Source: a bacterium (Candidatus Blackallbacteria) CG13_big_fil_rev_8_21_14_2_50_49_14
GTDB lineage: Bacteria > Cyanobacteriota > Sericytochromatia > UBA7694
Length of the DNA stretch: 64,000 nt
NCBI GenBank assembly: GCA_002783405.1
Contig: PFGG01000055.1
Coordinates: 1-64,000, forward strand
Direction of reading: 5' to 3'
In this document: piece by piece, positions 35,154 through 41,322 of the stretch
How the letters are laid out: each line of letters opens with the position of its first letter
Numbering within the stretch: the stretch's first letter is position 1
The notes under the pieces: model-generated
Told to the model about the DNA's origin: nothing
What the model saw: only the letters and a program-made list of their open reading frames with translations
Database searches by the model: none
Program-made: the position numbers and the translations under genes

Positions 35154-35627
35154 ATGCAGAAAAACAAATCCATATCCATTCTCAGCATTCTGCTGACCCT
35201 TTTACTTTCTATCACCCTCTCTGTTCCAGCATTTGCCTGCGAAACAGTTGAGTGCATCAAAATAAAAAAAGATCCTGCTGTTGCCATGGGGCTCAATTTG
35301 ATTCCTTTTGGCGTAGGCTCCTATCATCAAGGCGATGTATTTGCAGGTGCTGCCATCACCACAATTGATAGCATCAGCATAATTATTGCCATCGCCCCTT
35401 TTACTTATTTACCCATACTACAAGAGAACGGTGGATTGGGTGTCCTGGCAACTTCAAGTTGGGCTCTAATTGGATTTCTCTTAGGGCGCATTGTCGGCTT
35501 TACCGCCCCTTGGCTACATTATCATTATTATGAAAAACAAATCATAAACTCTAAAACAGACCCCCACAATTCAGACCCAAACAGCGTTCTAAGTCCAACC
35601 CTACTCAACTACCAGTTTTCATTTTGA
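35154..35627 (+). CDS. Small membrane protein with signal peptide
   Basis: 157 residues. Signal peptide (about 1-29, ending PAFA), then CETVEC, and two or three hydrophobic segments (ITTIDSISIIIAIAPFTYL, GVLATSSWALIGFLLGRIVG). The segment MGLNLIPFGVGSYHQGD resembles the start of bacterial P13-like small membrane proteins, a weak likeness. AT-richer than its neighbours. Monocistronic, with a strong hairpin after it. Confidence 0.65.
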   Translation: MQKNKSISILSILLTLLLSITLSVPAFACETVECIKIKKDPAVAMGLNLIPFGVGSYHQGDVFAGAAITTIDSISIIIAIAPFTYLPILQENGGLGVLATSSWALIGFLLGRIVGFTAPWLHYHYYEKQIINSKTDPHNSDPNSVLSPTLLNYQFSF

Positions 35628-35653
35628 TTCATTCTCAGCTTTGACTTAAAATC

Positions 35654-35687
35654 TATGAAAACAGACCCATCTGGGTCTGTTTTCATA
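35654..35687. terminator. 34-bp near-perfect palindrome before glpD
   Basis: The 16-bp arms tatgaaaacagaccca and tgggtctgttttcata match perfectly, with a 2-base centre. It lies 27 bases after the membrane-protein stop and about 100 bases before glpD. The A-rich 5' side and T-rich 3' side fit a bidirectional terminator, but the perfect symmetry would also suit an operator. Confidence 0.55.
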
Positions 35688-35789
35688 AGGGAGAATTATT
35701 TTGAAGCTGAACTTCCTGATACAATGGTTTTAACGCGGCGCGTCTTTCTCCCCCATTGACCACCCCTCTGCGCGCCCAAGGAGTTTTTC

Positions 35790-37457
35790 ATGAAACGCAA
35801 TCTCGCCCAAATGGCGACGGAAACCTATGACCTGTTAATTATCGGTGGCGGTATTACAGGGGCCTGTATCGCCTGGGATGCCGCCCTGCGCGGTCTGAAA
35901 ACAGCCCTGGTAGAGAAAAGCGATTTTTCGGGTGCCACCAGTTCAGCCCCCTCTAAACTGGTACATGGCGGCCTGCGCTATCTGAAAAACCTGGAATTTG
36001 GGCTGGTACGGGAATCTTTGCGCGAACGCCGCTATTTAGAACAAATCGCACCGCACCAGGTCGACCCCTTGCCTTTTTTGCTGCCCGCCTATCGCCAAAG
36101 CCAGAACAGCCCCCCCATTCTGCTCGCCGGTATGACCCTCTATGAGCTGCTTTCCTATGATAAACGCTGGCTGCAAGACCCCGATAAACAACTGCCCTCT
36201 TTTCACCCGCTCAGCCGCAAAGAAACCCTGCGCCGTGTGCCCCAACTCACGCCTGAGGGTCTGATCAGCGGGCTGCTCTATTACGATTGCCTGATGCACT
36301 CCCCTGAACGCCTGACGCTTGATTTTCTGCAAGCGGCCAGTGAAGCAGGAGCAGATTTGGCCAATTACGCCGAAGTAACGGGGTTTGAGCGCGAGGGAAA
36401 AAGCCTGACCGGTGTCACTCTCCAGGATCGCATCGGCGGCGAAAATCTCAGCCTGAAAAGCAAGGTGATCGTCAATGCCTCTGGCCCGTGGGCCGATTTG
36501 CTGCTGGGGTTGATGGAAGAAGAACCAGCCCGCCATCTGCTGCGCTCCAAAGGCATTCATATCATCACCCGAGCGATTGCGCCTCTGGATCAGGCCCTGA
36601 CCCTGACCAACGAACAGGGTGAACACCTGTTTATTATTCCCTGGCGTGGCTATTCTTTGATTGGCACCACCGATCGCCAGTTTGAAGGGCACCCCGACCA
36701 GTTCAAGGTCACCAGCGAAGATATTGATGAACTAATTGAAAAAACCAACCGCATGTATCCAGCCGCCGCCCTGACCCGTACCGATGTGCGCTATTTTTAT
36801 GGCGGTTTGCGTCCGATTGTCGAAAAAGAGACCAAGGTCAAGGTCGACAGTTACAAAGCCTCACGCAAGCATGAGGTCTATGACCACGAAGAGGAAGGGA
36901 TTCACGGCCTGATCTCTGTAATTGGCGGCAAATACACCACCGCCCGCCACCTCGCCGAACAGGTGGTGGACAAGGTTTATCACCAGCTCAAACAACCCAA
37001 AGCACCTTGCCCCACGATTCAGGCCCAAATCAGCGGCGGAAAAATCGAACGCTACCAGGATTTTGTCAGTGCACAACAGAGCAAATGGTGCCTTTACCGC
37101 CCTGAGCTGATTGCCCACCTCTGCCGCAGCTATGGCGCACGGGTCGATAAGGTGCTGGAAGTTGGGAAAACGGCTCCCGGCCTGCTTGACCCCCTTTCCC
37201 CCGATTTACAGGAAGTGGGCGCTGAAATTCTCTATGCCGTGCGCGAAGAAATGGCACAAACCTTAGCCGATGCTGTTTTCAGACGTACCGGACTGGGCAC
37301 CCTGGGGGATCCTGGTACCGCAGCGCTTGAAAAAGCAGCGGATCTGATGGCCCAGGAATTGGGCTGGGATTCTGAAAAACGCGCCAGTGAACTGGCACGG
37401 GTCAAAGCCCGCTTTGTCCTGCCGGAAGCAGAAACAGCGGCCCAGGCTTCCGCGTGA
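35790..37457 (+). CDS. glpD: FAD-dependent glycerol-3-phosphate dehydrogenase
   Basis: 555 residues. Oxidises glycerol-3-phosphate to dihydroxyacetone phosphate at the membrane, passing electrons to quinone. FAD motif IIGGGITGACIAWDAALRG (about 17-35), SAPSKLVHGGLRYLKN and FIIPWRGYSLIGTTDRQFEG are typical of GlpD. Length is standard. Start ATG follows caaggag. The stop overlaps the lipid-kinase start (GTGA). In this operon its product DHAP would be the precursor for ether-lipid synthesis by the third gene. Confidence 0.93.
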   Translation: MKRNLAQMATETYDLLIIGGGITGACIAWDAALRGLKTALVEKSDFSGATSSAPSKLVHGGLRYLKNLEFGLVRESLRERRYLEQIAPHQVDPLPFLLPAYRQSQNSPPILLAGMTLYELLSYDKRWLQDPDKQLPSFHPLSRKETLRRVPQLTPEGLISGLLYYDCLMHSPERLTLDFLQAASEAGADLANYAEVTGFEREGKSLTGVTLQDRIGGENLSLKSKVIVNASGPWADLLLGLMEEEPARHLLRSKGIHIITRAIAPLDQALTLTNEQGEHLFIIPWRGYSLIGTTDRQFEGHPDQFKVTSEDIDELIEKTNRMYPAAALTRTDVRYFYGGLRPIVEKETKVKVDSYKASRKHEVYDHEEEGIHGLISVIGGKYTTARHLAEQVVDKVYHQLKQPKAPCPTIQAQISGGKIERYQDFVSAQQSKWCLYRPELIAHLCRSYGARVDKVLEVGKTAPGLLDPLSPDLQEVGAEILYAVREEMAQTLADAVFRRTGLGTLGDPGTAALEKAADLMAQELGWDSEKRASELARVKARFVLPEAETAAQASA

Positions 37458-38386
37458 GCCGGATTGTTGCGATCGTCAACCCCCAGTCTGAGGCGGGCAA
37501 AACCGCCAAGGCCTGGCCTGATATTCTGGCCCGCTTGGAAGCACGGATTGGCCCGCTGGAAAGCCGCCTGACCCAAGCCCGGGGCCATGCCACAGCGCTG
37601 GCCCGCGAAGCCCTGGCCCAAGGCGCGGATTGGCTGATTTGCGTGGGCGGAGATGGCACCCTGAATGAGGTCATCAATGGCATGTTCGAAAACGATCAGC
37701 CCCTCAACCCTGAAGCCCAGCTTTCCTTGATCATGCGCGGCACGGGGGGAGATTTTCGCAAATCCCTGGGCCTTGAAAATACCCTCGAGGCCTATCTCGA
37801 AGCCCTGGCCACAGCCCCTGTGCGCCAAATCGATTTGGGCAAAGTCACGCTTAAAAACGAAGCAACCCAAGAATTCAGCCGCTATTTTGTCAATCTTGGC
37901 AGTTTTGGCATGGGCGGGGATGTGGTGCATCGGATTGAAAATACCCCCTGGCTCAAGCAAATGGGGGGCACCCCCGGTTTTATGCTGGCCAGCCTGCAAA
38001 GCTTGAGCCAGTTCAAACCCCAGCGCGTGCGCCTGCAAATTGACGAAACCCTCGACTGGCAAATCAAAATCCTACAGGTTGCGGTGGCCAATGGCACCAC
38101 CCATGGCGGTGGAATGCGCGTCGCGCCCTTGGCTGAGCTGAATGATGGCTGGTTTGATTTGGTGATTTTAACCGGCATCGGCCCCTTTGAGGCCGCCCTG
38201 ACCTTTCCCCGCGTTTACCAGGGCACCCATCTCAGTGCCCCGGCCGTACGCCATTTGCGCTGCCGCCAGCTGGTGGCTGAAGCCCTGGGCAAGGAACCGG
38301 TCTGGATTGAAATAGACGGCGAAACCCCTGGCAAACTGCCCGCCCACTTTGAACTGCTGCCGGGCCTGCTCCGGCTGAAAGGCTGA
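37454..38386 (+). CDS. Diacylglycerol/lipid kinase family protein (DagK-like)
   Basis: 310 residues, GTG start inside the glpD stop. The kinase signature VGGDGTLNEVINGMF (about 60-74) and the start IVAIVNPQSEAGKTAKAWPD are typical of the YegS/DgkB lipid-kinase family; FVNLGSFGMGGDVVHRIENT and VANGTTHGGGMRVAPLAELN also fit. Probably phosphorylates diacylglycerol or an alkyl-acylglycerol. Three bases separate it from the next gene. Confidence 0.9.
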   Translation: MSRIVAIVNPQSEAGKTAKAWPDILARLEARIGPLESRLTQARGHATALAREALAQGADWLICVGGDGTLNEVINGMFENDQPLNPEAQLSLIMRGTGGDFRKSLGLENTLEAYLEALATAPVRQIDLGKVTLKNEATQEFSRYFVNLGSFGMGGDVVHRIENTPWLKQMGGTPGFMLASLQSLSQFKPQRVRLQIDETLDWQIKILQVAVANGTTHGGGMRVAPLAELNDGWFDLVILTGIGPFEAALTFPRVYQGTHLSAPAVRHLRCRQLVAEALGKEPVWIEIDGETPGKLPAHFELLPGLLRLKG

Positions 38387-38389
38387 ACC

Positions 38390-40066
38390 ATGCGCTACGC
38401 CCGTGAAAAACTCAAATGGAATGGCTGGGGCTGGCAGGATCAGCACTTTGATTTCGAAGGCAGAGACACCAGCTTTTGGAAATTTTTACAGACCGAACTC
38501 AAACTTCAAAGCCTCAGCCCAACCCCGGCCTGCCCGCTTGAAAATTTAGAAGTCCCGGCTTCACGGCTCAACCCAGCCCAGGCCCAGGCCCTGGCAAAAA
38601 TTCTTGACCCCTGGCAAGTCAAAAGCGATCTGCGGGAACGGGTTTTGCACGCCCGTGGGCGCAGCCTGCCGGATTTACTTGATCTGCGCAGTGGCACACT
38701 CCAGGATCTGCCCGATGCTGTGGTTTACCCCCGCAATGCACGCCAGATTCAGGCCCTGCTGGAGTTTGCCCATTCAGAAAAGCTGGCCCTGGTTCCCTTC
38801 GGGGGAGGCAGCAGTGTGGTCGGTGGGGTTCAGGCTTCCTGCCGGGCCGATCAAGCCGGAGTTCTGAGCCTGGATCTGAGCCTGATGCAGCACCTGCTTG
38901 AAATTGACGAAGTCTCATTGACCATGACCGCTGAAGCGGGAATCTATGGCCCCGAACTTGAAGAAAAACTACAGGCCCGCGGCTATACGGTGGGCCATAC
39001 CCCGCAATCCTTTGAGTTTTCAACCCTGGGGGGCTGGATCGCAGCACGGGGCGCCGGAGACCGTTCCAACCGCTACGGCAAGGTCGAAGACATGCTGGTG
39101 GCCGCCAAGGTCTTGACACCCCAAGGCGAGTGGCTCTTGCCCGCTCTGCCCGCTTCGGCTGCCGGCCCCGATTTGCGCCAGGTGCTGGCAGGTTCAGAAG
39201 GCATCCTGGGTGTTATTGCCGAGGCCACGCTCAAGATTCACCCACTTCCCCCCGCCCAGGATGCGCGCGGGTTTCTGTTTCGGAATTTTTTAAGCGGTCT
39301 TGAGGCTCTGCGACAGCTCGTACAGCGGGGAGCCCCCACGGCCATGCTGCGACTTTCTGATGAAGCCGAAACCCAGTTCTTATTCCGCTTTCGTAAAAAA
39401 GCAGGCCCCGACCCTCTGCCCCAACGTCTGATCAAGCAATATCTGGCCTCTCAGGGCTATACCCAACACCCTGCCCTTTTGCTCGCCGGTCAGGAGGGAG
39501 AACAGACCGAAGTCCAGAACTGGGCCCGCCAGACCTCGAAACAGCTCAAAGCCCATGGAGCCTTTGCCCTCGGCCCCAAAGCCGCTGAAAGCTGGCACAA
39601 AAGCCGCTACAGCACGCCCTATCTGCGGGATACCCTGCTGGATCACGGAATTGCAGTTGAAACCCTTGAAACCGCCTGTGAGTGGCGCAAACTGCCAGCG
39701 CTTTACCAAGCCCTGAAAGACACCCTTCAAACCCAGATCGATCAAGGCCTTAAAACAAGTGGATCCCAAGGCTTTGTCATGACCCATATCTCTCATTGTT
39801 ACCCCGATGGAGCTTCGCTCTATTTCACCTTCGCCTTTCCCCTGCTGCCTGGCCAGGAAAGGGAACAATACCAAGCCATTAAAACAGCGGCCTGCGAAAC
39901 GATTGTGGCACAAGGCGCAACCCTCAGCCACCACCACGGCATCGGGCGGGATCATGCCCCCTGGCTACAGGCAGAAAAAGGCGATCTGGGCATGGCGCTG
40001 CTGCGTCAGATGCGCAAAACCCTCGACCCAGAGGGCATTCTCAATCCTGGCAAATTGCTGGATTAA
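38390..40066 (+). CDS. agpS: Alkyldihydroxyacetonephosphate synthase-like FAD enzyme
   Basis: 558 residues. VAO/PCMH-type flavoprotein: FAD motifs PFGGGSSVVGGV (about 142-153) and QSFEFSTLGGWIAARGAGDR. The features that mark eukaryotic-type AGPS are present: HISHCYPDGASLYFTF with Y471, and the triple histidine SHHHGIGRDH (H514-516). AGPS swaps the acyl chain of acyl-DHAP for a fatty alcohol, making the ether bond. D-lactate/glycolate oxidases lack the HHH pattern. The operon with glpD and a lipid kinase supports a lipid role. The acyltransferase and alkyl-DHAP reductase are not in the window. Confidence 0.85.
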   Translation: MRYAREKLKWNGWGWQDQHFDFEGRDTSFWKFLQTELKLQSLSPTPACPLENLEVPASRLNPAQAQALAKILDPWQVKSDLRERVLHARGRSLPDLLDLRSGTLQDLPDAVVYPRNARQIQALLEFAHSEKLALVPFGGGSSVVGGVQASCRADQAGVLSLDLSLMQHLLEIDEVSLTMTAEAGIYGPELEEKLQARGYTVGHTPQSFEFSTLGGWIAARGAGDRSNRYGKVEDMLVAAKVLTPQGEWLLPALPASAAGPDLRQVLAGSEGILGVIAEATLKIHPLPPAQDARGFLFRNFLSGLEALRQLVQRGAPTAMLRLSDEAETQFLFRFRKKAGPDPLPQRLIKQYLASQGYTQHPALLLAGQEGEQTEVQNWARQTSKQLKAHGAFALGPKAAESWHKSRYSTPYLRDTLLDHGIAVETLETACEWRKLPALYQALKDTLQTQIDQGLKTSGSQGFVMTHISHCYPDGASLYFTFAFPLLPGQEREQYQAIKTAACETIVAQGATLSHHHGIGRDHAPWLQAEKGDLGMALLRQMRKTLDPEGILNPGKLLD

Positions 40067-40176: not shown

Positions 40177-40449
40177 ATGGAAATTACCCCAGTGCGGATT
40201 GAAGCCAGTGGAATGGGCGTTTTTGAAAAAACAGAAACCGTCGAAACCCAAGTTCCTGAGAACACGGGCAGCGAAAAAGCCGGTGCCTCCCCCTGTGCCC
40301 AAGACAGCCTCAAACTCACGAAAAAAATGCGCCGTCAGCTTGAAAAAAAAGTGAGCCGCTTTAAACAGGCCGTGATCAGTCCCGCTGAACAGCAGCAGCG
40401 TGAAAAAGTGGCTCAACCCCAGCACCCTAAATTTCGCGCCCAGGCCTGA
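40177..40449 (+). CDS. Small hypothetical protein
   Basis: 90 residues with a good ribosome site (gaggaggg). Polar, with a basic helical middle (KLTKKMRRQLEKKVSRFKQA) and Gln/Pro-rich tail; no membrane segment. Family not recognised. Convergent with the hydrolase gene, 9 bases apart. Confidence 0.55.
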   Translation: MEITPVRIEASGMGVFEKTETVETQVPENTGSEKAGASPCAQDSLKLTKKMRRQLEKKVSRFKQAVISPAEQQQREKVAQPQHPKFRAQA

Positions 40450-40458
40450 AGGCTTTGC

Positions 40459-41322
40459 TTAAAGGGCCTCTAGCACGCTCAAGGCTGAGCCTGCCAGAAC
40501 AGGTTCGCTTTGGCTGACCCGATGGGCATGGCGTTCAGGCACTTCTTTGCCAAAATGCCCGAGAATTTCCTGTAAAAGCGCACGGTTGTTTTCATTTAAA
40601 AGACAATGTCCGGCTTCAGCCAGAATCACCTCCTGGGCCTGGGGCAGGCGCGGAACCAAGGCCGTGGTGGCGCGTGAAATAAAGGTGTTTTTAACGCCCC
40701 GGATACAGAGAATCGGCAGTTGCAAATCTTCAAACTGCCAGGGCAAGAACTGGGGATACTCGCGCAGCCAAAGAGCCTGAACCTTGCGGCAGGAACGCAT
40801 ATACGCCTCAACAAAGGCGGCCACGCGTACAGGATCTGCCTGGGCTGGGTTATACGAAAGCGAACGCAAATGGCGCAAAACCTCTGGGCGGTAGTGCAAG
40901 CTGTTGGCATATCCCTTGGCATAGAGCGGCAAGAGAGCCTTGAGCAAAGGACGCAGTTCAAAAATCGCAGGCTCCATCCAGACGGCTGAGCTGATCGGCA
41001 ATCCCCTTCGCATCAGATGATAGGAAACCAAGCCGCCCAAGGAATGCCCGATCACGCGAAAAGGTCCCTGGATATGGGTGCGCACAAAGGTTTCAATCAG
41101 ATCGAGATAGGCAGCTGTCGTGGCAGGACGCACCCCACGTGAAAAACCATGACCGGGCAAATCGGGGGCGAGCAGGTGAAAATGGGGGCTCAGGGCGGCC
41201 ATAATCGGCATATACAGCTGCGCGTCGGCACCATTGCCATGCAAAAGCAGCAGGGGTTCACCCTGGCCAAATTCCAGATAATGCAGGCTTCCCGTGCCAG
41301 GGTCACGGCGGTATTCAGGCAT
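40459..41322 (-). CDS. Alpha/beta hydrolase
   Basis: 287 residues. Oxyanion strand LLLLHGNGAD (about 24-33), nucleophile elbow GHSLGG (Ser at about 97), acid region ILCIRGVKNTFIS and catalytic His in AEAGHCLL near the C-terminus. Start ATG has aaaggag upstream. Substrate unknown; could be an esterase or lipase. Confidence 0.87.
   Translation of the reverse strand: MPEYRRDPGTGSLHYLEFGQGEPLLLLHGNGADAQLYMPIMAALSPHFHLLAPDLPGHGFSRGVRPATTAAYLDLIETFVRTHIQGPFRVIGHSLGGLVSYHLMRRGLPISSAVWMEPAIFELRPLLKALLPLYAKGYANSLHYRPEVLRHLRSLSYNPAQADPVRVAAFVEAYMRSCRKVQALWLREYPQFLPWQFEDLQLPILCIRGVKNTFISRATTALVPRLPQAQEVILAEAGHCLLNENNRALLQEILGHFGKEVPERHAHRVSQSEPVLAGSALSVLEAL

What the first reader, a model, noticed from the sequence alone, without database searches (positions are those of the whole stretch)
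35790..40066. Candidate ether-lipid operon: glpD, lipid kinase and AGPS-like enzyme
The third gene keeps the residues expected of alkyl-DHAP synthase (HISHCYPDGASLYFTF and the HHH motif). The first supplies DHAP and the second is a lipid kinase. Their overlaps (GTGA, 3-base gap) show one operon. It suggests aerobic-type ether-phospholipid synthesis in this bacterium, a route mostly known from eukaryotes and a few bacterial groups.
Basis: partly seen in the sequence, partly recalled or inferred. Interest (0 to 1): 0.65.

Follow-up and report, generated by a model that had tools for sequence, protein, structure and literature searches.

The report
AGPS-like operon with GlpD, lipid kinase
Three neighbouring bacterial genes encode a lipid kinase, a glycerol-phosphate dehydrogenase and a relative of the human enzyme that makes ether lipids; the same set occurs in many bacteria, and it may break down or recycle ether lipids rather than make them, which nobody has tested.

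Summary
Window 35790-40066 holds glpD, a YegS/Rv2252-family lipid kinase and an AGPS-like flavoprotein, with a GTGA overlap and then a 3-base gap. The AGPS-like protein keeps every catalytic residue checked (R419, R515, Y578, H615-H617 of guinea pig AGPS), folds like AGPS, and lies outside D-lactate and glycolate dehydrogenases.

The protein falls in a bacterial clade ("type I") outside the clade (100/98) that holds both characterised AGPS enzymes. Type I genes sit beside glpD in 46 of 55 well-flanked named loci across many phyla, usually with a kinase (YegS or, alternatively, FGGY) and a TetR or FadR-like regulator. One locus is a natural AGPS-GlpD fusion. P. aeruginosa PA3026-PA3023 is a published example. 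True AGPS operons ("type II", with FAR1-GNPAT) exist in classmates, including a congener whose glpD-yegS locus lacks the AGPS gene; none of 18 class genomes has both types. The own genome has no FAR1-like fatty-alcohol reductase.

Best reading: three consecutive steps on 1-O-radylglycerols (kinase, GlpD, AGPS-type exchange), more likely ether-lipid salvage or breakdown than de novo synthesis. Direction is unproven. It is a new member of a known gene cluster of untested function.

The parts
35790..37457 (+). GlpD-family FAD-dependent glycerol-3-phosphate dehydrogenase, 555 aa; the only GlpD in the genome
   Evidence: DAO 199.7 bits, DAO_C 96.2 bits; GlpD equivalog PRK12266 328 bits, below its cut-off of 360; sole strong match in own genome
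37454..38386 (+). YegS/Rv2252/BmrU-family lipid kinase, 310 aa, GTG start overlapping the glpD stop
   Evidence: DAGK_cat, YegS_C; TIGR00147 145.6 bits over cut-off 118.65
38390..40066 (+). AGPS-like (type I) flavoprotein, 558 aa; R321, R413, Y478, H514-H516 match guinea pig AGPS R419, R515, Y578, H615-H617
   Evidence: FAD_binding_4 + FAD-oxidase_C; PDB 2uuu/4bby; tree; residues; model pLDDT 89.6 and AGPS as top 37 PDB fold matches
40459..41322 (-). alpha/beta hydrolase on the opposite strand; marks synteny with the congener locus, not clearly part of the operon
   Evidence: Abhydrolase_6; 75% identical neighbour in congener locus L205

Best explanation
The operon encodes three consecutive steps on 1-O-substituted glycerols. 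The YegS-type lipid kinase phosphorylates a free alkyl- or acyl-glycerol to 1-O-radyl-glycerol-3-phosphate. The GlpD-family flavoprotein oxidises C2 to the DHAP form, probably besides ordinary G3P. The AGPS-type flavoprotein then exchanges or removes the group on C1 through a flavin N5 adduct, as AGPS does. The favoured direction is salvage or breakdown of ether glycerolipids (alkyl-DHAP to DHAP or acyl-DHAP plus fatty alcohol). Shown by computation: gene set, linkage, family placement, residues, fold. Inferred: substrates, GlpD acting on radyl-G3P, and direction.
For: R419, R515 and Y578 of AGPS are kept in 90 of 90 type I proteins, while outgroups differ. glpD lies within 4 kb in 46 of 55 well-flanked named loci; YegS in 30 and FGGY in 6 of those 46, never both, as if the two kinases replace each other. 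The FGGY kinase tested is not GlpK: 188 bits against a cut-off of 590. A natural AGPS-GlpD fusion, L071, has no acyltransferase between the domains, so the GlpD product should be the AGPS substrate. Regulators are TetR or FadR-like, the latter with the acyl-CoA-sensing FadR_C domain. FAR1-GNPAT is in all 7 type II genomes searched, while no type-I-only genome has a full-length match: two weak domain hits, and the family's stand-alone GNPAT-like protein lacks the FAR half. Own genome has no FAR1-like protein. In P. aeruginosa, GliR activates PA3026-PA3023 together with a phospholipase C (PMC8151288). AGPS works by a ping-pong flavin adduct that holds activated DHAP (PMC3509576).
Against: No activity is known for any type I enzyme. 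Deleting PA3026-PA3024 gave no growth phenotype in the conditions tried. In this lineage GlpD is the sole GlpD beside a real GlpK and glpD-yegS persists without the AGPS gene in the congener, so these two need not be dedicated to it. Type I and type II are mutually exclusive in the class (0 of 18 with both), which can also mean both do the same, synthetic, job. FadR can activate synthesis genes too (own knowledge). FGGY kinases usually act on small polyols, not lipids (own knowledge).
Confidence: 0.43

Rival explanations
1. One reading: the AGPS-like enzyme makes alkyl-DHAP for ether phospholipids. GlpD supplies DHAP, a PlsB/GNPAT-like acyltransferase elsewhere in the genome makes acyl-DHAP, and the lipid kinase salvages alkylglycerol.
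For: Family, fold and active site are those of AGPS. A stand-alone acyltransferase 48% identical to the GNPAT part of the type II operon lies at G000:C50:5356-6705. In this class type I and type II never co-occur and swap in 3-5 independent pairs, as expected if type II replaces type I. P. aeruginosa authors proposed glycerol to alkylglycerone phosphate.
Against: No FAR1-like reductase in the own genome and none full-length in the other type-I-only genomes. The PlsB-like proteins may simply be the GPAT, since PlsY is absent. Type I lies outside the clade of characterised AGPS. Sign test on the swaps cannot reach 0.05, and two other genomes carry both types. Type I occurs in mycobacteria and streptomycetes, not known for alkyl-ether phospholipids (own knowledge).
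Confidence: 0.33
2. The type I enzyme acts on something other than alkyl/acyl-DHAP, for example as a dehydrogenase or ether cleaver of another glycerol-phosphate derivative, and the operon serves general glycerol or glycerolipid use.
For: Related type III AGPS-like genes sit with TRAP transporters, GMC oxidoreductases, CoA transferases or acyl-CoA synthetases on plasmids. FGGY, a small-polyol kinase family, replaces YegS in some loci. GlpD and GlpK are the genome's single copies.
Against: All AGPS-specific catalytic residues tested are kept, unlike in dehydrogenase outgroups; top fold matches are AGPS.
Confidence: 0.2
3. It is a glycolate oxidase or D-lactate dehydrogenase misread as AGPS.
For: Shares the FAD_binding_4/FAD-oxidase_C architecture; NCBIfam's best hit is GlcD, 138 bits against a cut-off of 568.
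Against: Tree places it with AGPS, outgroup split 100/99; R419, R515 and Y578 equivalents kept; PDB hits far stronger to AGPS.
Confidence: 0.02

Closest known systems
Pseudomonas aeruginosa PA3026-PA3023 (GliR regulon; PMC8151288)
   Same: AGPS-like oxidoreductase, GlpD homologue and YegS-type lipid kinase in one cluster; authors suggested alkylglycerone phosphate formation
   Different: Also has an FGGY kinase and an AraC-type regulator; gene order differs; PA3026 itself was not placed in the tree here
Actinobacterial glpD-TetR-AGPS-like-YegS cluster (Streptomyces L033, Tsukamurella L034, mycobacterial loci; from memory Rv2249c-Rv2252 of M. tuberculosis)
   Same: Same three enzyme families; AGPS-like proteins on the type I side of the tree
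   Different: Divergent gene layout and a TetR regulator; its GlpD forms a separate clade from these organisms' other GlpD copies
Parvibaculum glpD-yegS-AGPS operon (L041, L046)
   Same: Same gene order and orientation; about 47-48% identical AGPS-like proteins; GlpD sister clade
   Different: Alphaproteobacterial; no regulator found next to it
Alkylglycerone-phosphate synthase, EC 2.5.1.26 (guinea pig 4bby, Dictyostelium 2uuu) and the Myxococcus MXAN_1676-1674 type operon
   Same: Fold, FAD domains, catalytic residues
   Different: Only 30-33% identical; separate clade; the type II operon carries FAR1-GNPAT and an epimerase-family gene instead of glpD and yegS

Membership tests
AGPS branch of the FAD_binding_4/FAD-oxidase_C flavoproteins | Both Pfam domains present | tested here: met
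AGPS branch of the FAD_binding_4/FAD-oxidase_C flavoproteins | Catalytic residues R419, R515, Y578, H615-H617 (guinea pig numbering) | tested here: met
   Window R321, R413, Y478, H514-H516; R352, R447, Y508 of the Dictyostelium enzyme are important for catalysis (PMC3509576)
AGPS branch of the FAD_binding_4/FAD-oxidase_C flavoproteins | Groups apart from D-lactate and glycolate dehydrogenases | tested here: met
   Split 100/99
AGPS branch of the FAD_binding_4/FAD-oxidase_C flavoproteins | Nearest fold is AGPS | tested here: met
   Top 37 PDB matches are AGPS, TM (query) 0.77-0.89; D-LDH next at 0.72 or less
AGPS sensu stricto (orthologue of characterised enzymes) | Same clade as guinea pig and Dictyostelium AGPS | tested here: not met
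   Those two lie in a clade supported 100/98 that excludes the window protein
AGPS sensu stricto (orthologue of characterised enzymes) | Fatty-alcohol-forming FAR1-like reductase in the genome | tested here: not met
   other aldehyde/alcohol routes were not tested
AGPS sensu stricto (orthologue of characterised enzymes) | DHAP acyltransferase (GNPAT) in the genome | tested here: inconclusive
   GNPAT/PlsB-like protein at C50:5356-6705, but PlsY is absent so it may be the GPAT
AGPS sensu stricto (orthologue of characterised enzymes) | Alkyl-DHAP synthase activity | not testable with these tools
   Needs purified enzyme
Aerobic glycerol-3-phosphate dehydrogenase GlpD | DAO + DAO_C domains and NCBIfam GlpD equivalog score | tested here: inconclusive
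   Domains met; PRK12266 328 bits, below 360; in one starred set of ten rows with E. coli GlpD
YegS/Rv2252/BmrU lipid kinase | TIGR00147 score over cut-off | tested here: met
   145.6 bits against 118.65
glpD/kinase/AGPS-like (type I) cluster | Type I AGPS-like gene next to glpD and a kinase gene | tested here: met
   Window itself; 46 of 55 loci have glpD, 36 of these with a kinase

The most novel reading that the evidence does not exclude
The kinase, GlpD-type and AGPS-type enzymes form an oxygen-independent bacterial pathway that cleaves the ether bond of alkylglycerols: phosphorylate, oxidise C2, then run AGPS chemistry backwards. [quoted passage not shown]
Probability: 0.33. Interest if true: 0.75.

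Novelty: new member of a known kind. Interest (0 to 1): 0.42.

Why it matters
AGPS-like genes in metagenomes have been counted as a sign of ether-lipid synthesis (for example PMC11868695, with a 30% identity threshold). If type I enzymes salvage or break down ether lipids instead, those counts overestimate producers, and a widespread oxygen-independent ether-cleaving pathway has been overlooked. The co-occurrence pattern (type II with FAR1-GNPAT; type I with glpD and a kinase) gives a simple way to separate the two.

Tried and rejected
Glycolate oxidase or D-lactate dehydrogenase identity: rejected by tree and residues. Myxococcus-type AGPS operon: the window gene is not that; the true type II operon sits elsewhere in classmates. 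A dedicated FAR in the own genome: best PF07993 hit is an NRPS-type thioester reductase. AGPS remnant in the congener locus: none found by tblastn. Large genes downstream of AGPS in other loci as pathway partners: unrelated families (ATPase, DUFs, purine synthesis). Literature search for Rv2251/Rv2252 function gave only two passing mentions; searches for bacterial glyceryl-ether degradation found no pathway of this kind.

Full report
Observation. glpD (35790-37457) overlaps the kinase gene (37454-38386) by GTGA, and the AGPS-like gene (38390-40066) follows after three bases. Domain searches confirm DAO + DAO_C, DAGK_cat + YegS_C, and FAD_binding_4 + FAD-oxidase_C. The kinase passes the TIGR00147 YegS/Rv2252/BmrU cut-off; the GlpD equivalog score is just under its cut-off (328 against 360).

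The AGPS-like protein. Its best solved relatives are Dictyostelium AGPS (344 bits) and guinea pig AGPS (267 bits); D-lactate dehydrogenase follows at 120 bits. A model of the window protein (pLDDT 89.6) matches AGPS structures in all 37 top places. The residues known to matter in AGPS are kept: guinea pig R419, R515, Y578 and H615-H617 correspond to window R321, R413, Y478 and H514-H516. Five of these six are invariant in 90 of 90 type I proteins; H616 is Gln in 16. Dehydrogenase outgroups differ at R419, Y578, H615 and H616. The Dictyostelium counterparts of R419, R515 and Y578 are important for catalysis (PMC3509576; its residue numbers differ by three from those counted along the chain here).

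Tree. Two trees separate all AGPS-like proteins from D-lactate/glycolate-type enzymes (100/99). Guinea pig AGPS, Dictyostelium AGPS, the bacterial type II enzymes and a few bacterial relatives form one clade (100/98). The window protein lies elsewhere, in a type I clade (99/96) with alphaproteobacterial, myxobacterial, Hydrogenedentota and Chloroflexota proteins. Type I as a whole is not shown to be one clade. Guinea pig AGPS is 44-46% identical to type II proteins but about 32% to the window protein.

Gene neighbourhoods. A scan of one genome per species returned 80 loci from many phyla. They were chosen as the best matches to the window protein, and several are near relatives (many mycobacteria), so the counts are not independent. 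Of 55 loci with enough flank, 46 have glpD within 4 kb. Of those 46, 30 also have YegS, 6 have an FGGY kinase, none has both, and 10 have neither. The FGGY kinase examined is not a glycerol kinase by NCBIfam. Regulators are TetR in Actinobacteria and FadR-like with the acyl-CoA-sensing FadR_C domain in Chloroflexota and others. L071 is a natural 1104-residue AGPS-GlpD fusion. In P. aeruginosa the equivalent genes PA3026-PA3023 are activated by GliR together with a phospholipase C; deletion gave no phenotype, and the authors proposed alkylglycerone phosphate formation (PMC8151288).

Type I against type II. Relatives in the same class carry a second kind of AGPS gene, followed by a FAR-acyltransferase protein and an epimerase-family protein, the arrangement described for Myxococcus MXAN_1676-1674 (PMC9131029). 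The FAR-acyltransferase protein is found in all 7 type II genomes tested. Among type-I-only genomes there is no full-length match: two have weak domain hits (35-36% and 31% identity), and the own family's stand-alone GNPAT-like protein matches only the acyltransferase half. Only 2 of 45 genomes with type I also carry type II. In the 18 class genomes, 9 have type I, 5 have type II and none has both (hypergeometric 0.015, ignoring relatedness; the tree-aware sign test cannot reach 0.05). In the congener G016 the same locus has glpD (79%) and yegS (67%) and the flanking hydrolase (75%), but no AGPS gene or remnant. This swap fits either replacement of one synthase by another or avoidance of making and degrading ether lipids in one cell.

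Own genome. GlpD is the only copy. A bona fide GlpK exists. There is no FAR1-like reductase and no PlsY; PlsB/GNPAT-like acyltransferases exist and may be the ordinary GPAT. The genome's phylum looks like Cyanobacteriota from its neighbours' sizes and codes, but this is an inference and was not tested.

Mechanism. A GlpD-AGPS pair or fusion without an acyltransferase is easiest to explain if GlpD makes the AGPS substrate directly, that is, a radyl-DHAP from a radyl-G3P, and if the kinase makes that radyl-G3P. This gives a three-step module on alkyl- or acyl-glycerols. The missing FAR1, the acyl-CoA-type regulators and the phospholipase link in P. aeruginosa favour salvage or breakdown; the AGPS active site and the type I/type II swap leave synthesis open. 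I put breakdown/salvage at 0.43 and synthesis at 0.33.

Verdict. Observation confirmed; interpretation partly supported. The cluster is a new member of a known, functionally untested kind.

Noticed in passing
L071:2100-5414: Natural fusion of a type I AGPS-like protein and a GlpD-family protein (1104 aa) in a Proteobacteria MAG.
   Followed up: partly
window 40179-40453: Short ORF of about 90 aa directly after the AGPS-like gene, no family searched.
   Followed up: no
window 35154-35627: Small membrane-protein-like ORF upstream with a weak, below-cut-off hit to the Borrelia P13 porin family.
   Followed up: no
window 35653-35688: Long inverted repeat (16-pair stem) between the P13-like ORF and glpD; the T-rich tail is on the minus strand only.
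   Followed up: no
L205:5769-6920: In the congener, the position of the AGPS-like gene holds an unrelated opposite-strand ORF of 383 aa.
   Followed up: no
L036, L037, L038: A third AGPS-like group (type III) on plasmids, in different settings: sterol-desaturase-family genes; acyl-CoA synthetase between Tn3 transposases; TRAP transporter, GMC oxidoreductase and CoA transferase.
   Followed up: partly
L072: Contig labelled Bifidobacterium breve MAG whose type I protein groups with Solirubrobacteraceae; probably mis-binned.
   Followed up: no
L013, L015, L016 (type II in G016, G032, G035): Type II AGPS proteins of these genomes are much closer to each other than their GlpD proteins are, which suggests recent horizontal transfer of the type II operon.
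   Followed up: partly
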